64,000 bases of DNA from Erythrobacter tepidarius (lineage in GTDB: Bacteria; Pseudomonadota; Alphaproteobacteria; Sphingomonadales; Sphingomonadaceae): positions 62,001-126,000 of the forward strand of contig NZ_MUYJ01000003.1 in NCBI RefSeq assembly GCF_002155695.1, given 5' to 3'. The translations under genes were made by a program, and so were the position numbers. Positions within the stretch are counted from its first letter, which is position 1; each line of letters opens with the position of its first letter. Below the pieces are notes generated by a model. The model made no database searches. It worked only from the letters and a program-made list of their open reading frames with translations, and was not told where the DNA came from. Shown piece after piece: positions 13,542 through 18,376 of this stretch.

Positions 13542-15263
13542 TCAGCCTTCCTTCTCGCTCCACCGGACGATCGCACGGTCAAGCTCCCTGAGAATTCGCT
13601 GGCGCGTTTGCTCCGGGATATCGCGATTGGCGGCAATCTCGTCGCGCGCTTGTTTCAGTCCCCTGCGCGCGGAGGCATAAATGCGCCGCTCGCAAATGGT
13701 CACGGTGCTCGTCCCGTCGGCGTGCTCGGTGGTTTCGGCGGGCTCGTCGCTGCCCGGACGGCATTCGCGTTTGACGACCACCCGGGCCTGCTGGCTTGCC
13801 GCTGTGGCTGCGGCGCGGGCTGCTTCGGCCTCGGCCATGGCCTCGCTGACGATCCGCGGCATGTCGGCCAGCGCGCGGTCAGCCTCCGCCAGCCCCTGGC
13901 GCAGTTCGGCCAGCATCTTCTCCTGATCGGCGCGGCGCGCTTCGGCCAAGGCCTTCAGCTCGGCAGCCTGCGCAGCGCGGTCGCCATGACCGCGGAACAC
14001 CATCCGCACGCGCTTTTCCTTGCCGTCCTCGCCGCGGACTACGCGCTCGATCACTTCGACCTTCCCGTCCTTGCCTTCCGGGGCATCGGGATCGATCGCG
14101 AGGATCGCTTCGATCGCCGGCTGCGCGGGGGGCGCGGGCGGCTCCGGGGCCTCGGGCGGCGCCGGGGGTGAAGGCGGGGCGGGCGGTGCCGGGGGCGCAG
14201 GCGGTGCCGGAGGCACGGGCGGCTTGGGCAGCGTCGGCGCGGCCTCGCCGGCAGCATAGCTGACCGTGGCGGTCAACGGCAGCGCGAGCAGGCCGAGGCC
14301 CAGCATCGCGCGGCCAGCCAGACGGCGGCGGGGTGAAATGTGCGACATCCTCAGGCTCCTCAATCGTTCTATGATGGATTTCTCGCCAAGCACGGGGCAC
14401 GCCATCGGCGCGGCCAGAGCAAGGTTGGGGCCGGCCGCGAATCCGGCGATCAGGCGGGCATAGGCGGCCCGCTCCTCGGCGCTGCGGCGGGCGATCACGC
14501 GGGCATCGCAGGCCGCCTCCTGATCGCGCCGCAGCGCCAGCCAGCCATAGTGCCCGAGCGGGGTGAACCAGTGCAGCGCGAAAAGCGGCTGAACCACGAC
14601 ATTGACCAGCAGATCAAGCCCGCGGTGATGCGCCAGCTCGTGCGCCAGCGCGAGATCGCGCGCGCGCCGGTCATGCAGGGCCATGAAGCCCGGCGGCAGC
14701 GCGATCACCGGATCGAGCACCCCGAAGGCAAGCGGGGCAAGCGTGCCGGGGGTCTCGACCAGCCGGATCGGCCCCAGCGGCCCGGAAGCTCTGCCGACCT
14801 CGCGCGCGTCGGCCAGCAGCTGTTCGCGCAGCGCGAAATAGGCGGTGAAGCGACGGATCAGGAACACCCCCGCCCCGCCCAGCCACACCGCCAGCAGGAT
14901 TTCCGCAAGCGGCAGGGTGCCCAACCAAGCGAGGAAATCGAAAGCCGGTTCGGGCGGCGGCGGGGCGGCCACGCTGAAGGTGGCTGGCACGCTCTCGGCC
15001 TGCCAGGCGAGCGGCTCGACGAGCGTGGCGCGCGTGGCCTCGCTCGGAGCGGGGTGCGGCGCGAGCTGCGACAGCAGCGGGTCGGCCGGGGCCATCCATG
15101 CCGGCAGGGTCAGCGGCGGCAGCACCAGCCGCAGCACCGGCAAGGCCCACAGCGCATAGGCATATTGCGGCCCGAAGGTGCGGGCCACCGGACGGCGCAG
15201 CACCAGCACCAAAGCGATCAGCGCGCCGCTCCAGGCGAGCGTTTCCAGCACTGCCACGCTCAT
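13542..15263 (-). CDS. BlaR1/MecR1-like M56 family metallopeptidase
   Basis: 573 residues. Transmembrane segments are visible at about 10-22, 36-53, 112-136 and 317-337. The zinc motif HELAH (208-212) and downstream RRDQEAACDARVI match the M56 gluzincin domain of BlaR1. After the last membrane segment comes a Pro/Ala-rich stretch (about 344-382, PPAPPAPP repeats), then a charged coiled-coil-like tail rich in Ala/Glu, and two Cys near the end. The penicillin-binding sensor domain of true BlaR1 is absent. It overlaps the BlaI-like gene (ATGA), so the pair is likely a repressor plus membrane protease switch with an unknown signal. Confidence 0.82.
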   Translation of the reverse strand: MSVAVLETLAWSGALIALVLVLRRPVARTFGPQYAYALWALPVLRLVLPPLTLPAWMAPADPLLSQLAPHPAPSEATRATLVEPLAWQAESVPATFSVAAPPPPEPAFDFLAWLGTLPLAEILLAVWLGGAGVFLIRRFTAYFALREQLLADAREVGRASGPLGPIRLVETPGTLAPLAFGVLDPVIALPPGFMALHDRRARDLALAHELAHHRGLDLLVNVVVQPLFALHWFTPLGHYGWLALRRDQEAACDARVIARRSAEERAAYARLIAGFAAGPNLALAAPMACPVLGEKSIIERLRSLRMSHISPRRRLAGRAMLGLGLLALPLTATVSYAAGEAAPTLPKPPVPPAPPAPPAPPAPPSPPAPPEAPEPPAPPAQPAIEAILAIDPDAPEGKDGKVEVIERVVRGEDGKEKRVRMVFRGHGDRAAQAAELKALAEARRADQEKMLAELRQGLAEADRALADMPRIVSEAMAEAEAARAAATAASQQARVVVKRECRPGSDEPAETTEHADGTSTVTICERRIYASARRGLKQARDEIAANRDIPEQTRQRILRELDRAIVRWSEKEG

Positions 15264-15649
15264 GGCCTAAGCTCCTTGAGCAGCGCCTCGATTTCGGCGA
15301 GGTCATCCTCGGTAAGCGCCTCGGTCTCGGCCAGATGGGCAACCAGCGAGGCCGCGCTGCCACCGAACAGCCGGTCGACCAGCCGCCGGGATTCGCCCCC
15401 GACATAGGCGGCACGTTCGATCAGCGGCGAATAGAGATAGCGCCGCCCGTCCGGCTCGGCGGCAATTGCGCCCTTCTGGACAAGGCGGGACAGCAGGGTC
15501 TTGACGGTGGCGGGGCTCCAGCCCCGCGCGGCGCAGACTTCCTCGCAGACCTCGGCCGCGGTGCGGCGCGGGCGTTGCCACAGCACGTCCATCACCGCCA
15601 GCTCGGCCTCGGTGATGCGCTCGTGGACCGGTTCCTCGGTGCTGTTCAC
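15260..15649 (-). CDS. BlaI/MecI-family transcriptional repressor
   Basis: 129 residues from the GTG at 15649, preceded by GGGAGG at good spacing. The open frame runs further upstream to 15775, but that part covers the operator and has no matching sequence. The winged-helix domain ITEAELAVMDVLWQRPRRTA, WSPATVKTLLSRLVQKG and RRYLYSPLI matches BlaI/MecI; the helical dimerisation part follows. Cleavage of such repressors by the partner M56 protease relieves repression. The neighbouring TACA/TGTA dyads are the obvious binding site. Confidence 0.88.
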   Translation of the reverse strand: MNSTEEPVHERITEAELAVMDVLWQRPRRTAAEVCEEVCAARGWSPATVKTLLSRLVQKGAIAAEPDGRRYLYSPLIERAAYVGGESRRLVDRLFGGSAASLVAHLAETEALTEDDLAEIEALLKELRP

Positions 15650-15673
15650 GAAGGGGCCTCCCTCAAGCTTGAT

Positions 15674-15704
15674 TACATCTGTAGTCATCACGACTACGGC
15701 TGTA
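15674..15704. promoter_or_regulatory. BlaI-type operator (compound dyad) in the divergent promoter region
   Basis: Two TACA-NN-TGTA-like half-site pairs: TACATCTGTA at 15674-15683 (perfect) and TACGGCTGTA at 15695-15704 (one mismatch). Between and overlapping them is a perfect 6-bp inverted repeat GTAGTC/GACTAC with a 5-base spacer (15681-15697). TACA/TGTA dyads are the known recognition elements of BlaI/MecI. The site lies 25-55 bases upstream of the repressor start and about 70 bases upstream of the divergent gene, so it could control both. AT-rich relative to its surroundings. Confidence 0.75.
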
Positions 15705-15774
15705 AACATTGCCACCCGATGAACCGCGCGCCTGCCCGCTTGCGCCTCGACGAAGCGCCGATATGTTCGGACCA

Positions 15775-17376
15775 ATGATGTTGCGCGCCGCCTTCTCCGC
15801 TCTGCTTGCCGCCCTTGCCGCGCCCGCGCTGGCGCAGAGCGAAAGCTTCCTGCCGCTGACCGAGCCGATCGAGCTTGCCCCGGGCGAGCCGGACAGGCAG
15901 GTCGGCGCGCTCATCTACCGCGGCGGCGTGGCGATCGCGCCCGACAAGGCCGGGATCGGCGGCATTTCGGGCCTCGAATGGTACGACGGGAAGCTCTACG
16001 CCGTCACCGATGACGGGCGCTGGCTGGTGCTGACGCCGGAGGATGTGCAGGGCCGGCTGGTCGATGTTTCCGCAGTGACCCTCGCCCCGCTCCTCGACGC
16101 GAAGGGCAGAAGGCTCGGCTCCAAGGAGCGCGGCGATGCCGAGGCGATCACCCGAACGGGGGACGGGACATGGCTGGTCGCCTTCGAGCAGGAGCACCGC
16201 ATCTGGCGCTATCCCGCCCTCGATGGCGCGGCGGCCGGCGGCGAGAGCGGCGCGGCGGCGCTGGTGGCGGGGGCAGAACCCAATCGCGGGATCGAAACCC
16301 TTGCCGGCTTTGCCGAAGGCCTGCTGGCTTGCGGCGAATGGGCCGATCCGGCGCGCCCCAACTGCCTGCGCATTACCGCGACCGGGTCCACGCCGTTCCA
16401 CCTCGCCGTGCCCGAGGGGATTGCCGCCGCCGGGGGCGTGCCGAGCGATGCCGCCTGCAGCCTTGAGGGCACCTGTTACGTCCTGTTGCGCAGCTACAAC
16501 CCCGGCGAAGGCAACCGCGCGGCAATCGTCAGGCTTGCGCCCGACAATGCTGCAACCACACTTGCCGTGCTCGCCCCGCCGCTCACGCTCGACAATTTCG
16601 AGGGGCTGGCGCTGCGCGAGGAGCCGGAGGGCAGCTTCCTCTATCTCGTCTCGGACGACAATTTCCACAATTGCGACAACGACCCCACACCCGGCTGCCA
16701 GCGCACCTTGCTGATGAAGTTCCTGATCGATGGCACCCAGCCCTTGGCCAGCCCGGGAGGGCAGGTCATCGCCGCCGTTCCGCCCACCCCCGCAACCGGT
16801 CGACCGGGCAAACGCCCCTTCCCCGAGGCCGCGAGCGTCAGCGTGGTGCTGTCCACCGAACTGGGCGATATCACCATCGCGCTCGAAACCGAGCGTGCGC
16901 CGATCACCGCCGGCAACTTCCTGCGCTATGTTGATGAAAAGCGTCTCGACGGCACGGTCTTCTACCGCGCAATGCGATTGGACCGGGCGCCGCGCCCCAA
17001 CGGATTGCTGCAGGGCGGCACCCAGTTCGATCCCAAGCGCATCCTGCCGCCCATCCCGCACGAGCCGACGACGCAGACCGGGCTGACCCACACCCACGGC
17101 GCGCTGTCGATGGCAATGGGCGAGCCTGGCAGCGCCAACGGCGATTTCTCTATCATGATCGAGGACCAGACCGGCCTCGACGCCGATCCATCCGCGAGCG
17201 ATCCGGTTTGGAAGCACGGCTATGCGGTGTTCGGCTATGTCACGGACGGGATGGACGTGGTCGCGGCGATCCACGCCACCGCGATCGATCCTAACAAGGG
17301 CGAAGGCTGGATGAAGGGCGAGATGTTGGCGAGGCCGGTGAAGATCATTTCTGCCCGGCGCGTGCCGGCGCGATAA
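15775..17376 (+). CDS. Secreted phytase-esterase-like domain fused to a cyclophilin-type peptidylprolyl isomerase
   Basis: 533 residues in one uninterrupted frame. A signal peptide (MMLRAAFSALLAALAAPALA) is followed by a domain like the esterase-like activity of phytase family: GISGLEWYDGKLYAVTDDG (about 63), DAEAI (about 120), NFEGLAL (about 275). After a Pro-rich linker, a cyclophilin domain begins near residue 353: LGDITIALETERAPITAGNF, VFYRAM, GALSMAMG and YAVFGYVTDGMDVV. The isomerase part has no signal of its own, so the fused form would carry it to the periplasm. Start: ATG 15775 (15778 and 15763 also possible). It is divergent from the BlaI-like gene and overlaps the C13 peptidase gene tail to tail by 32 bases. 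Confidence 0.78.
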   Translation: MMLRAAFSALLAALAAPALAQSESFLPLTEPIELAPGEPDRQVGALIYRGGVAIAPDKAGIGGISGLEWYDGKLYAVTDDGRWLVLTPEDVQGRLVDVSAVTLAPLLDAKGRRLGSKERGDAEAITRTGDGTWLVAFEQEHRIWRYPALDGAAAGGESGAAALVAGAEPNRGIETLAGFAEGLLACGEWADPARPNCLRITATGSTPFHLAVPEGIAAAGGVPSDAACSLEGTCYVLLRSYNPGEGNRAAIVRLAPDNAATTLAVLAPPLTLDNFEGLALREEPEGSFLYLVSDDNFHNCDNDPTPGCQRTLLMKFLIDGTQPLASPGGQVIAAVPPTPATGRPGKRPFPEAASVSVVLSTELGDITIALETERAPITAGNFLRYVDEKRLDGTVFYRAMRLDRAPRPNGLLQGGTQFDPKRILPPIPHEPTTQTGLTHTHGALSMAMGEPGSANGDFSIMIEDQTGLDADPSASDPVWKHGYAVFGYVTDGMDVVAAIHATAIDPNKGEGWMKGEMLARPVKIISARRVPAR

Positions 17377-18376
17377 AATCCGCCGGATCGAAGGCCGGGC
17401 GGCCCACCGGCGCGCTGGCGATGCGGGGCATGTGCGCTTCGATCTGCGCCAGCCAGCCCTTGGCCTCGGCGCCGATGCTGACCTGCGGGAGCGAGGCGAG
17501 GAAGCGTGCCCGGGTTTCCCATTCCGCGACCGAACGCCCGGCCATCTTCGCCGCCTCTTCGAGGCTGACCGGCTGGCGCAGTGCGCGGTTGATCAGCGCA
17601 TCGCCGAAGAAGGTCCAGTCGTTCTCGGCGGCGCAGCCGAAGGAAGTGCGCGTCGCAGCCGCCGCGGTGAGGATCGCGGTGTCGGGGCTGGCGAGCACCG
17701 GCACAAACACCCCAGAATGGCAGGCCGAGAGGATCAGCACCCGCCGCCGGATACCCGCCTCCTCCAGCGCCGCCTTGAGCCGCGCGGGGCTGAGGATGCC
17801 GTAGCCGGTGTCGCCGTAGTGATAGACCAGGCCGATATCAGCGCCGTGGCTGGTGGTATAGAGCACCAGCACGTCCTCCGAAGGATCCATCAGGCTCCCG
17901 ATGTGGGAAAGCGCGAGCGCCAGCGCGGATATCGAGCCGTGGGGGGCATCGTCGCGCACCCCGTCCGGCCCGGCAAGCACCAGCATGCGCCCCTCGGCCC
18001 GGTAACGCGCCCCCAACACCCGCGCCGCCTCGCGCGCCTCGCGCGCGAAGACCGGATCGCTATCGAGCGCGACGGTGACGACGAAGGCATCCGGCGTGCC
18101 GGGGGTGTGGGGCCGAATCGCGGCCAGCGCGCTATCGAGCCGGCGCTGTTGGTCGCGCAAGGTTGCGGCGGACACCCCGCGCTGCAATTCCGGCCCGGCC
18201 TCGAAACTCGTCCGCCGCTCGATCCGGCTCTCCCCGCTGCCGAGATCGGGAAACGGCGCGGTGTGCGGCGGCGGCTGGAAAGGATTGGCGGGCGCGGACT
18301 GGGCCAAGCAAGGAGGTCGCACCGGAGCCGCAAGGAATAGCGCAAAAAGCCCAGCGATGATCCAGCCCCTGTTCAT
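17345..18376 (-). CDS. Secreted C13 (legumain-like) cysteine peptidase
   Basis: 343 residues with a signal peptide (residues about 1-26). The clan CD catalytic pair is visible: VLYTTSHGADIG with His177 after a hydrophobic strand, and VLILSACHSG with Cys219 after a second strand. This is the layout of C13 peptidases, some of which in bacteria are annotated as caspase-like. The N-terminal 80 residues are Pro- and Arg-rich. The 3' end overlaps that of the fusion gene. The cleavage specificity (Asn/Asp in eukaryotic relatives) cannot be inferred here. Confidence 0.75.
   Translation of the reverse strand: MNRGWIIAGLFALFLAAPVRPPCLAQSAPANPFQPPPHTAPFPDLGSGESRIERRTSFEAGPELQRGVSAATLRDQQRRLDSALAAIRPHTPGTPDAFVVTVALDSDPVFAREAREAARVLGARYRAEGRMLVLAGPDGVRDDAPHGSISALALALSHIGSLMDPSEDVLVLYTTSHGADIGLVYHYGDTGYGILSPARLKAALEEAGIRRRVLILSACHSGVFVPVLASPDTAILTAAAATRTSFGCAAENDWTFFGDALINRALRQPVSLEEAAKMAGRSVAEWETRARFLASLPQVSIGAEAKGWLAQIEAHMPRIASAPVGRPAFDPADFIAPARAGQK

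What the first reader, a model, noticed from the sequence alone, without database searches (positions are those of the whole stretch)
15775..17376. One reading frame joins a phytase-esterase-like domain to a cyclophilin
The frame runs without a break from a signal peptide through a phytase-esterase-like domain (to about residue 335) and a Pro-rich linker into a cyclophilin domain from about residue 353. The two are normally separate proteins. The cyclophilin lacks its own signal, so fusion may be the way it reaches the periplasm. If real, it links a hydrolase with a folding activity.
Basis: partly seen in the sequence, partly recalled or inferred. Interest (0 to 1): 0.55.

Follow-up and report, generated by a model that had tools for sequence, protein, structure and literature searches.

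The report
Secreted propeller–cyclophilin fusion in Erythrobacter
A group of mostly marine bacteria encode a protein, predicted to be exported, that joins a five-bladed propeller domain to a protein-folding (cyclophilin) domain; the fusion is real, looks to have arisen once, and sits in a slot where relatives carry a different domain, both, or none.

Summary
Window 15775-17376 (+) encodes 533 residues in one frame: signal peptide, Phytase-like domain (PF13449), Pro-rich linker, cyclophilin (PF00160). It is no sequencing artefact: 60 of 94 genomes of the genus carry both domains in one frame, and both evolve under purifying selection. The 60 fused propellers form one clade, so one origin is favoured. 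No match spanning both domains was listed outside the genus in samples of the order and class.

The proposed reason is not supported. Unfused orthologues, mostly at the same locus, have a signal peptide of their own (14 of 14 in the genus, 31 of 31 named loci, by a simple rule), so the cyclophilin does not need the fusion for export.

New: the stretch between signal peptide and cyclophilin is a variable slot. Among 77 genus loci it holds the propeller (59), another ~240-residue domain (3), both (1), or neither (14). The propeller model resembles YjiK and glutaminyl cyclases; the domain order matches eukaryotic PPWD1, by convergence. The 'phytase' name reports no tested function here. Best reading, mostly inferred: a periplasmic cyclophilin with an exchangeable N-terminal module.

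The parts
15775..17376 (+). Whole fused gene, 533 aa plus stop
   Evidence: full-length relatives
15775..15834 (+). Signal peptide, residues 1-20 (cut before QS, read by eye)
   Evidence: The rule finds a signal peptide in 63 of 63 genus proteins with propeller or TPRL
15841..16728 (+). Five-bladed propeller (Phytase-like, PF13449), residues 23-318
   Evidence: Pfam 60-297; AF2 of the domain alone pLDDT 91.8, about 20 strands, hence five blades; VIA Z 19.9 to YjiK 3qqz
16744..16830 (+). Pro-rich linker, residues 324-352
   Evidence: pLDDT under 50 at 324-334; sequence
16831..17373 (+). Cyclophilin domain, residues 353-533
   Evidence: VIA Z 24.0, 1.5 A over 160 residues to E. coli cyclophilin 1j2a
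15740..15774 (+). Promoter-like element TTGCGC-16-TATGTT ending 7 nt before the ATG; the message may be leaderless (inferred)
   Evidence: Pattern with this spacing in 57 of 77 genus loci: 46 of 60 with propeller, 3 of 3 TPRL, 8 of 14 cyclophilin-only; in 10 of 1540 shuffled controls
15673..15707 (.). Pair of BlaI-like palindromic boxes, 21 bp apart, between BlaI and the fused gene; goes with the BlaI-M56 pair at least
   Evidence: kept beside BlaI where the fused gene is absent; gone in two loci that keep the fused gene
15260..15649 (-). BlaI-type repressor (context; start codon inferred)
   Evidence: PF03965, 117.6 bits
13542..15263 (-). M56 (BlaR1-type) membrane peptidase (context)
   Evidence: PF05569, 137.3 bits
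17345..18376 (-). C13-type peptidase with a signal peptide (by eye), convergent, overlapping the fused gene by 32 bp (context)
   Evidence: PF01650, 57.7 bits

Best explanation
It is a soluble two-domain protein, exported to the periplasm, built on an old exported cyclophilin. A five-bladed propeller of the Phytase-like family came to lie, once and in frame, between a signal peptide and the cyclophilin domain. The flexible linker leaves the domains as two loosely tethered units. The propeller most likely acts as a recruiting or second-function module in the envelope: it binds a ligand or client through its conserved acidic face, or acts on it, and brings the prolyl isomerase to it. Because relatives fill the same slot with another domain, both or nothing, the N-terminal module is an exchangeable accessory and the cyclophilin the constant part. 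Shown here: the reading frame, both folds (as predictions), one clade of fused propellers, the slot, selection on both domains, the conserved acidic core. Inferred: export, the recruiting role, any catalysis.
For: Propeller and cyclophilin in one frame in 60 of 94 genus genomes. The 60 fused propellers are one clade, SH-aLRT 99, quick method. Slot states in 77 loci: propeller 59, TPRL+propeller 1, TPRL 3, neither 14. M56, BlaI, C13 and SdhA all lie in the fetched stretch of 68 of 77 loci; some of the nine exceptions are contig ends. Unfused orthologues have their own signal peptide. dN/dS below 1 in both domains in all nine comparisons. D79, E123, E138, N170, E174, D273, N274, E276, D294 and N296 are kept in at least 59 of 60 fused, 10 of 10 anchored and at least 24 of 25 far relatives. 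pTM 0.61 for the whole against 0.91 for the propeller alone fits a loose tether.
Against: No ligand, client or activity is known. The gene is dispensable in nature: 17 of 94 genomes have no match at E below 1e-60, and in 9 of the 15 of these whose SdhA side was fetched BlaI and SdhA are present with no cyclophilin match. One genome (G363, L264) has a decaying propeller. Three cyclophilin pocket positions depart from E. coli PpiA throughout or nearly so, so isomerase activity may be weak. The propeller may simply be an unrelated enzyme that gained a signal peptide and promoter by landing here.
Confidence: 0.5

Rival explanations
1. Passenger reading: the propeller is an independent envelope enzyme (phosphoester or ester hydrolase, as its family name suggests). 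The fusion gave it a cleavable signal peptide and a promoter; the cyclophilin is only a carrier or helps the propeller itself to fold.
For: A catalytic-looking core is conserved. The nearest relatives are free-standing propellers, apparently membrane-anchored, that end at the same point. The anchored gene (E up to 1e-85) is present in 8 of 60 fused genomes against 7 of 17 genomes with the cyclophilin but no fused propeller (states), as if the fusion could stand in for it.
Against: The difference in anchored copies is not corrected for kinship; 8 genomes keep both, and of 17 genomes without the cyclophilin only 2 have it. A carrier role does not explain why a quite different domain occupies the same slot.
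Confidence: 0.3
2. BlaI-M56 envelope-stress reading: the fused gene is the target of the divergent BlaI repressor and is induced when the M56 protein senses envelope damage.
For: A double box 21 bp apart lies between BlaI and the gene in 75 of 76 genus loci with a BlaI match.
Against: The boxes stay with BlaI when the cyclophilin lies about 1-5 kb away in other relatives and when the gene is absent (at least one box beside BlaI in 9 of 9 such loci). In G055 (L195) BlaI is a remnant and M56 and the boxes are gone, and G026 (L220) has neither BlaI, M56 nor boxes, yet both keep the fused gene and its near promoter. The single genome-wide match of TACNNNTGTAGTC is not above its control, the reversed pattern, which gave three; the long pattern was taken from this site and its relatives and matches by construction.
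Confidence: 0.12
3. Neutral domain shuffling at a permissive slot: in-frame inserts between signal peptide and cyclophilin are tolerated and come and go without function.
For: At least 4 changes between propeller and no propeller on the cyclophilin tree, a partial deletion in L222 (by eye), decay in L264.
Against: dN/dS 0.25-0.50 for the propeller and conservation of its core in nearly all of 60 genomes.
Confidence: 0.08

Closest known systems
Eukaryotic PPWD1 / Arabidopsis CYP71 (WD40 propeller plus C-terminal cyclophilin; layout recalled)
   Same: N-terminal propeller, C-terminal cyclophilin. By E-value the three best whole-model matches in the PDB are spliceosome chains 7a5p_z, 9fmd_w and 5yzg_2. 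7a5p_z and 5yzg_2 align over both domains and end at residue 646 like 2a2n, the PPWD1 isomerase domain, so they are taken to be PPWD1 (inferred).
   Different: Here the propeller is a five-bladed Phytase-like domain, not WD40; the protein is bacterial with a signal peptide; rmsd is 26 and 44 A over both domains, so the arrangement differs, and by Z plain cyclophilins rank above them. Convergence, not kinship (inferred).
E. coli periplasmic cyclophilin PpiA
   Same: Fold (1j2a, Z 24.0, 1.5 A over 160 residues; labelled cyclophilin B there, but over the aligned stretch shown its letters equal those of 8xck_j, labelled isomerase A). Arg and Gln of the active site kept (R398, Q413).
   Different: CypA positions F60, Q111 and W121 (numbering recalled; the last is Phe in PpiA) are G410, D457 and G467 here; F113 is S459 in the window but Phe in several relatives. 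The alignment to 3t1u is shifted at F60. Far below the NCBIfam PpiA cut-off (59.3 against 308 bits).
Free-standing Phytase-like proteins (PF13449)
   Same: Same domain, same acidic core.
   Different: Unfused; the sister group has an apparent N-terminal membrane anchor instead of a cleaved signal peptide (by eye). Cys228 and Cys234 are kept in 59 and 60 of 60 fused forms and are not the common residue in the others.
YjiK (SdiA-regulated family) and propeller glutaminyl cyclases
   Same: Best folds by Z among Foldseek's 1000 top chains: YjiK 3qqz 19.9; glutaminyl cyclases 3mbr, 2iwa, 3nol, 2faw, 3nok 17.6-18.9; next NHL propellers at 15.4 and below.
   Different: Identity 10-15%. Foldseek itself ranks a Deinococcus Cu/Zn-superoxide dismutase chain and an NHL domain first and second (TM about 0.45). 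No Pfam match to Glu_cyclase_2; catalytic residues not compared.

Membership tests
Cyclophilin domain (PF00160) | Profile match above the curated cut-off | tested here: met
   85.8 bits against 21.7
Cyclophilin domain (PF00160) | Cyclophilin fold | tested here: met
   Predicted model, VIA Z 24.0 to 1j2a
Cyclophilin domain (PF00160) | Canonical proline-pocket residues of CypA/PpiA | tested here: not met
   R398 and Q413 kept; F60, Q111 and W121 positions are G410, D457, G467 (numbering recalled). So it is filed as a cyclophilin-fold domain, not as a canonical PpiA
Cyclophilin domain (PF00160) | Prolyl isomerase activity | not testable with these tools
   Needs an assay
PpiA equivalog (NCBIfam PRK10903) | Score above cut-off | tested here: not met
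   59.3 against 308 bits
Phytase-like (PF13449) | Profile match above the curated cut-off | tested here: met
   102.5 bits against 27.6
Phytase-like (PF13449) | Glu/Asp/Asn core shared with free-standing relatives | tested here: met
   against 10 anchored and 25 far relatives; these relatives were found by similarity to the window's domain
Phytase-like (PF13449) | Esterase or phytase activity | not testable with these tools
   The family's name only; no convincing solved relative found by sequence
PPWD1/CYP71 type | N-terminal propeller followed by C-terminal cyclophilin | tested here: met
PPWD1/CYP71 type | WD40 propeller | tested here: not met
   Pfam gives PF13449 and lists no WD40 at E up to 0.1; about 20 strands, i.e. 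five blades
Propeller glutaminyl cyclase (PF05096) | Pfam profile match | tested here: not met
   Not among matches at E up to 0.1; no match of this family in the window's genome
Propeller glutaminyl cyclase (PF05096) | Fold of the solved cyclases | tested here: met
   Z 17.6-18.9 to five cyclases; a shared fold shows no function
Propeller glutaminyl cyclase (PF05096) | Catalytic residues and activity | not tested
   Cyclase sequences were not at hand for a residue comparison
BlaI regulon member | BlaI box controls the gene | tested here: inconclusive
   Boxes adjacent but they follow BlaI, not the gene

The most novel reading that the evidence does not exclude
The propeller acts like a glutaminyl cyclase on exported proteins and works in tandem with the cyclophilin: it caps N-terminal glutamines as pyroglutamate while the cyclophilin isomerises prolines of the same newly exported chain. 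Leads: nearest folds by Z include five glutaminyl cyclases; PF05096 has no match in 80 of 82 genus genomes, the window's among them; signal peptides here often end before Gln; and in Novosphingobium (same order, recalled) nine exported proteins carry N-terminal pyroglutamate, one of them labelled peptidylprolyl isomerase (PMC3608174, passages). Against: the cyclophilin-type isomerase in that table is not marked with pyroglutamate; cyclases of other kinds were not searched.
Probability: 0.05. Interest if true: 0.75.

Novelty: new variant of a known kind. Interest (0 to 1): 0.42.

Why it matters
It shows a bacterial exported cyclophilin gaining and losing N-terminal modules at one fixed slot, reaching by convergence the propeller-plus-cyclophilin order known from the spliceosomal PPWD1. 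Natural variants with propeller, another domain, both, neither, or no gene exist within one genus that includes named, cultured strains, so what an accessory domain adds to a prolyl isomerase can be tested directly. It also gives a handle on the Phytase-like family, for which the searches here turned up no tested function.

Tried and rejected
Sequencing error or assembly join at the linker: rejected, 60 genomes share the frame. Two separate genes with stop and start at the propeller-cyclophilin linker: none found; the only separate neighbour pair seen is TPRL next to the cyclophilin in L157. Several independent fusions: not favoured, since the fused propellers form one clade; state changes then read as losses, but lateral replacement of the locus is not excluded, because the trees use genes of the same locus. 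Fusion as the way to the periplasm: rejected. Long open frames upstream of the cyclophilin in other genera: 14 such loci were inspected, plus one with a normal frame, and none has a propeller match; other long frames listed (for example G878, 1050 aa) were not inspected. A fused or split form in genus g74 suggested by stop-bearing matches: inspected, no propeller match there. BlaI control: doubtful. Sequence search for a solved relative of the propeller: nothing convincing (three chains at E 1.2-1.4, none). TPR nature of the slot's other domain: Pfam gives TPR families only at E 0.29 and 1.3, below cut-off, and DUF6587 at 0.071, so 'TPRL' is a working label. Literature: the listings of searches (10 of 125 shown; 10 of 18 shown) show no title on this fusion; only PMC3608174 was opened (passages). 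The 'viral' fold library, PHROGs, PADLOC, Rfam and the phage, plasmid and viral collections were not searched.

Rows dropped: two duplicate loci (L278, L279) from the propeller tree; loci without enough SdhA from the SdhA+BlaI tree (89 of 93 rows kept), in which L204 and L222 had labels of their own.

Full report
What is there. Window 15775-17376 (+) is one open frame of 533 residues. Pfam places a Phytase-like domain at residues 60-297 (102.5 bits, cut-off 27.6) and a cyclophilin at 357-506 (85.8 bits, cut-off 21.7). A signal peptide precedes them (by eye and by the rule). The predicted structure has two confident domains and a stretch of low confidence at 324-334. The propeller alone folds with mean pLDDT 91.8 and about 20 strands, so five blades.

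It is real and conserved. I searched the 94 genus genomes returned at 90% completeness or more with the cyclophilin domain. 77 have the orthologue at E below 1e-60; 17 have only weak matches or none. I fetched all 77 loci and classed them (where L204 is counted under PHY although TPRL is listed too): propeller-cyclophilin 59, TPRL-propeller-cyclophilin 1 (G389, 795 aa open frame), TPRL-cyclophilin 3 (G030, G392, G227), cyclophilin only 14. In all 63 with an insert, insert and cyclophilin lie in one stop-free frame. dN/dS against nine relatives is 0.25-0.50 (propeller) and 0.10-0.41 (cyclophilin); the signal peptide (up to 2.25 in one pair) and linker (up to 0.91) are freer, and synonymous sites are near saturation in the more distant pairs. 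Named carriers include Erythrobacter sp. NAP1, E. longus, E. ramosus, E. donghaensis, E. sanguineus DSM 11032 and several Porphyrobacter (the best 80 of 355 matching stretches were kept, 78 loci: 46 with the propeller, 32 without).

Where it occurs. In an order-wide sample (347 genomes) and a class-wide sample (387 genomes), the listed matches that run without a stop from well inside the propeller into the cyclophilin come only from the window's own genus. Both lists are cut at the weak end, and the samples share genomes with each other and with the other searches. One match from genus g74 (G464) seemed to span both with a stop inside; on inspection its upstream stretch has no propeller match. 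Of the loci found in the family search with the cyclophilin (298 genomes), 15 from other genera were inspected, 14 with long frames, and none has a propeller match.

Same locus in relatives. M56, BlaI, C13 and SdhA all lie in the fetched stretch of 68 of 77 genus loci; BlaI in 76 and C13 in 72. Among the named unfused loci and those of other genera the cyclophilin mostly has BlaI and SdhA near it too, often with an LldD-like or other gene between BlaI and it; several of the more distant ones do not (for example L145-L148). Unfused orthologues have their own signal peptide: 14 of 14 in the genus and 31 of 31 named, by a simple rule that 394 of 2800 shuffled controls also pass. So the fusion is not needed for export. 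A promoter-like element 7 nt before the ATG is seen in 57 of 77 loci, across all states, against 10 of 1540 shuffled controls.

A variable slot. Three genomes have, in place of the propeller, a ~240-residue domain (TPRL, a working label; no Pfam match above cut-off). One genome has both, in the order TPRL, propeller, cyclophilin. G388 (L222) keeps both ends of TPRL with the middle missing, then propeller and cyclophilin (by eye). In another genus (G255, L157) TPRL is a separate gene that ends 5 nt before the likely ATG of the cyclophilin, each with its own signal peptide by eye. TPRL matches in 6 of 94 genus genomes: four at this slot and two elsewhere in frames of 298 and 275 residues, G011 and G039, whose surroundings were fetched but not examined. 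Of the 17 genomes without the gene, SdhA-side stretches of 15 were fetched; in 9 BlaI and SdhA are there with no cyclophilin match; the other six show no BlaI, some because the contig ends.

Origin. On a tree of 95 propellers the 60 fused ones form one clade (SH-aLRT 99; quick method). Next to them are ten free-standing, apparently membrane-anchored propellers, nine from the genus and one (G109) from another. The propeller label needs 8 changes on the SdhA+BlaI tree, where L204 and L222 had labels of their own, and 5 on the cyclophilin tree, or 4 when pooled with the three-domain form. In both trees a few rows of other genera fall among the genus rows. One gain with several losses fits; replacement of the locus from outside is not excluded. 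The anchored paralogue (E up to 1e-85) occurs in 17 of 94 genomes: 8 of 60 fused, 7 of 17 with cyclophilin but no propeller, 2 of 17 without the gene; kinship is not corrected for.

What the domains may do. The propeller's acidic core is conserved. Among Foldseek's top 1000 chains the best by Z are YjiK (19.9) and glutaminyl cyclases (17.6-18.9), ahead of NHL propellers (15.4 and below); Foldseek's own first two ranks are a Deinococcus superoxide dismutase chain and an NHL domain at TM about 0.45. No convincing sequence relative is solved. Phytase or esterase activity is only a family name. The cyclophilin keeps Arg398 and Gln413, but the positions of F60, Q111 and W121 (CypA numbering, recalled) are G410, D457 and G467 by the alignments to the E. 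coli protein. R398, G410, Q413 and D457 are invariant and G467 nearly so over the 36 sequences of alignment A2, six of them unfused; the F113 position is Ser here and Phe in several relatives. So the altered pocket is not a product of the fusion. C186 and C197 are shared by 59 of 60 fused and 10 of 10 anchored forms; C228 and C234 are typical of the fused ones; disulfides are inferred.

Likeness to PPWD1. By E-value the best whole-model matches in the PDB are three spliceosome chains. Two of them align over both domains with rmsd 26 and 44 A, meaning the same order of domains and not the same arrangement; plain cyclophilins score higher there. Their numbering matches PPWD1 (2a2n). The propellers are of different types, so I read this as convergence.

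Regulation. A double box 21 bp apart lies between BlaI and the gene in 75 of 76 loci with a BlaI match. The match counts add nothing: the long pattern was taken from the site and its relatives, and the short one found one site against three for its reversed control. The boxes follow BlaI, not this gene. G055 keeps the fused gene with BlaI reduced to a remnant and M56 and boxes gone; G026 keeps it with no BlaI, M56 or boxes.

Novel reading. A glutaminyl-cyclase-like role is not excluded: PF05096 has no match in 80 of 82 genus genomes, the window's among them (3 of 14 control genomes ring), and passages of PMC3608174 report nine exported Novosphingobium proteins with N-terminal pyroglutamate; its table marks Saro_2251, labelled peptidylprolyl isomerase, with it, while Saro_0837, labelled cyclophilin type, lost its signal peptide but is not so marked. 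Other kinds of cyclase were not searched. I give it 0.05.

Verdict. A true, conserved fusion, seen only in this genus so far; a new variant of the multi-domain cyclophilins. Moderate interest, mainly for the slot and its natural variants.

Noticed in passing
L204 (G389; named equivalent L056): Three-domain protein: TPRL, propeller, cyclophilin in one 795-residue open frame.
   Followed up: partly
L222 (G388): Both ends of the TPRL domain remain with the middle missing (by eye), ahead of propeller and cyclophilin.
   Followed up: partly
L157:4737-5573: TPRL as a separate gene that ends 5 nt before the likely start of the cyclophilin gene, in another genus.
   Followed up: partly
L264 (G363): Propeller of the fusion is degenerate (acidic motif lost, a segment missing) while the cyclophilin is kept.
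   Followed up: partly
window 15673-15707: Highly conserved pair of BlaI-like boxes 21 bp apart, also beside BlaI in other genera.
   Followed up: yes
L195 (G055) and L220 (G026): L195: BlaI reduced to a fragment (residues 40-75), M56 and boxes gone. L220: no BlaI, M56 or boxes. Both keep the fused gene and its near promoter.
   Followed up: partly
window 17345-18376: C13 (legumain-like) peptidase gene overlapping the 3' end of the fused gene by 32 bp, convergent; a C13 match lies in the stretch of 72 of 77 genus loci.
   Followed up: no
L305-L314: Free-standing Phytase-like paralogues with an apparent N-terminal membrane anchor, next to the fused propellers on the tree.
   Followed up: partly
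L315 (G011), L316 (G039): TPRL matches in frames of their own elsewhere in two genomes.
   Followed up: no
genus, PF05096: Canonical propeller glutaminyl cyclase found in only 2 of 82 genomes (G036, G057).
   Followed up: no
G878:C22:4451-5041: Cyclophilin match inside a 1050-residue open frame in another family of the class; may be another multi-domain form or read-through.
   Followed up: no
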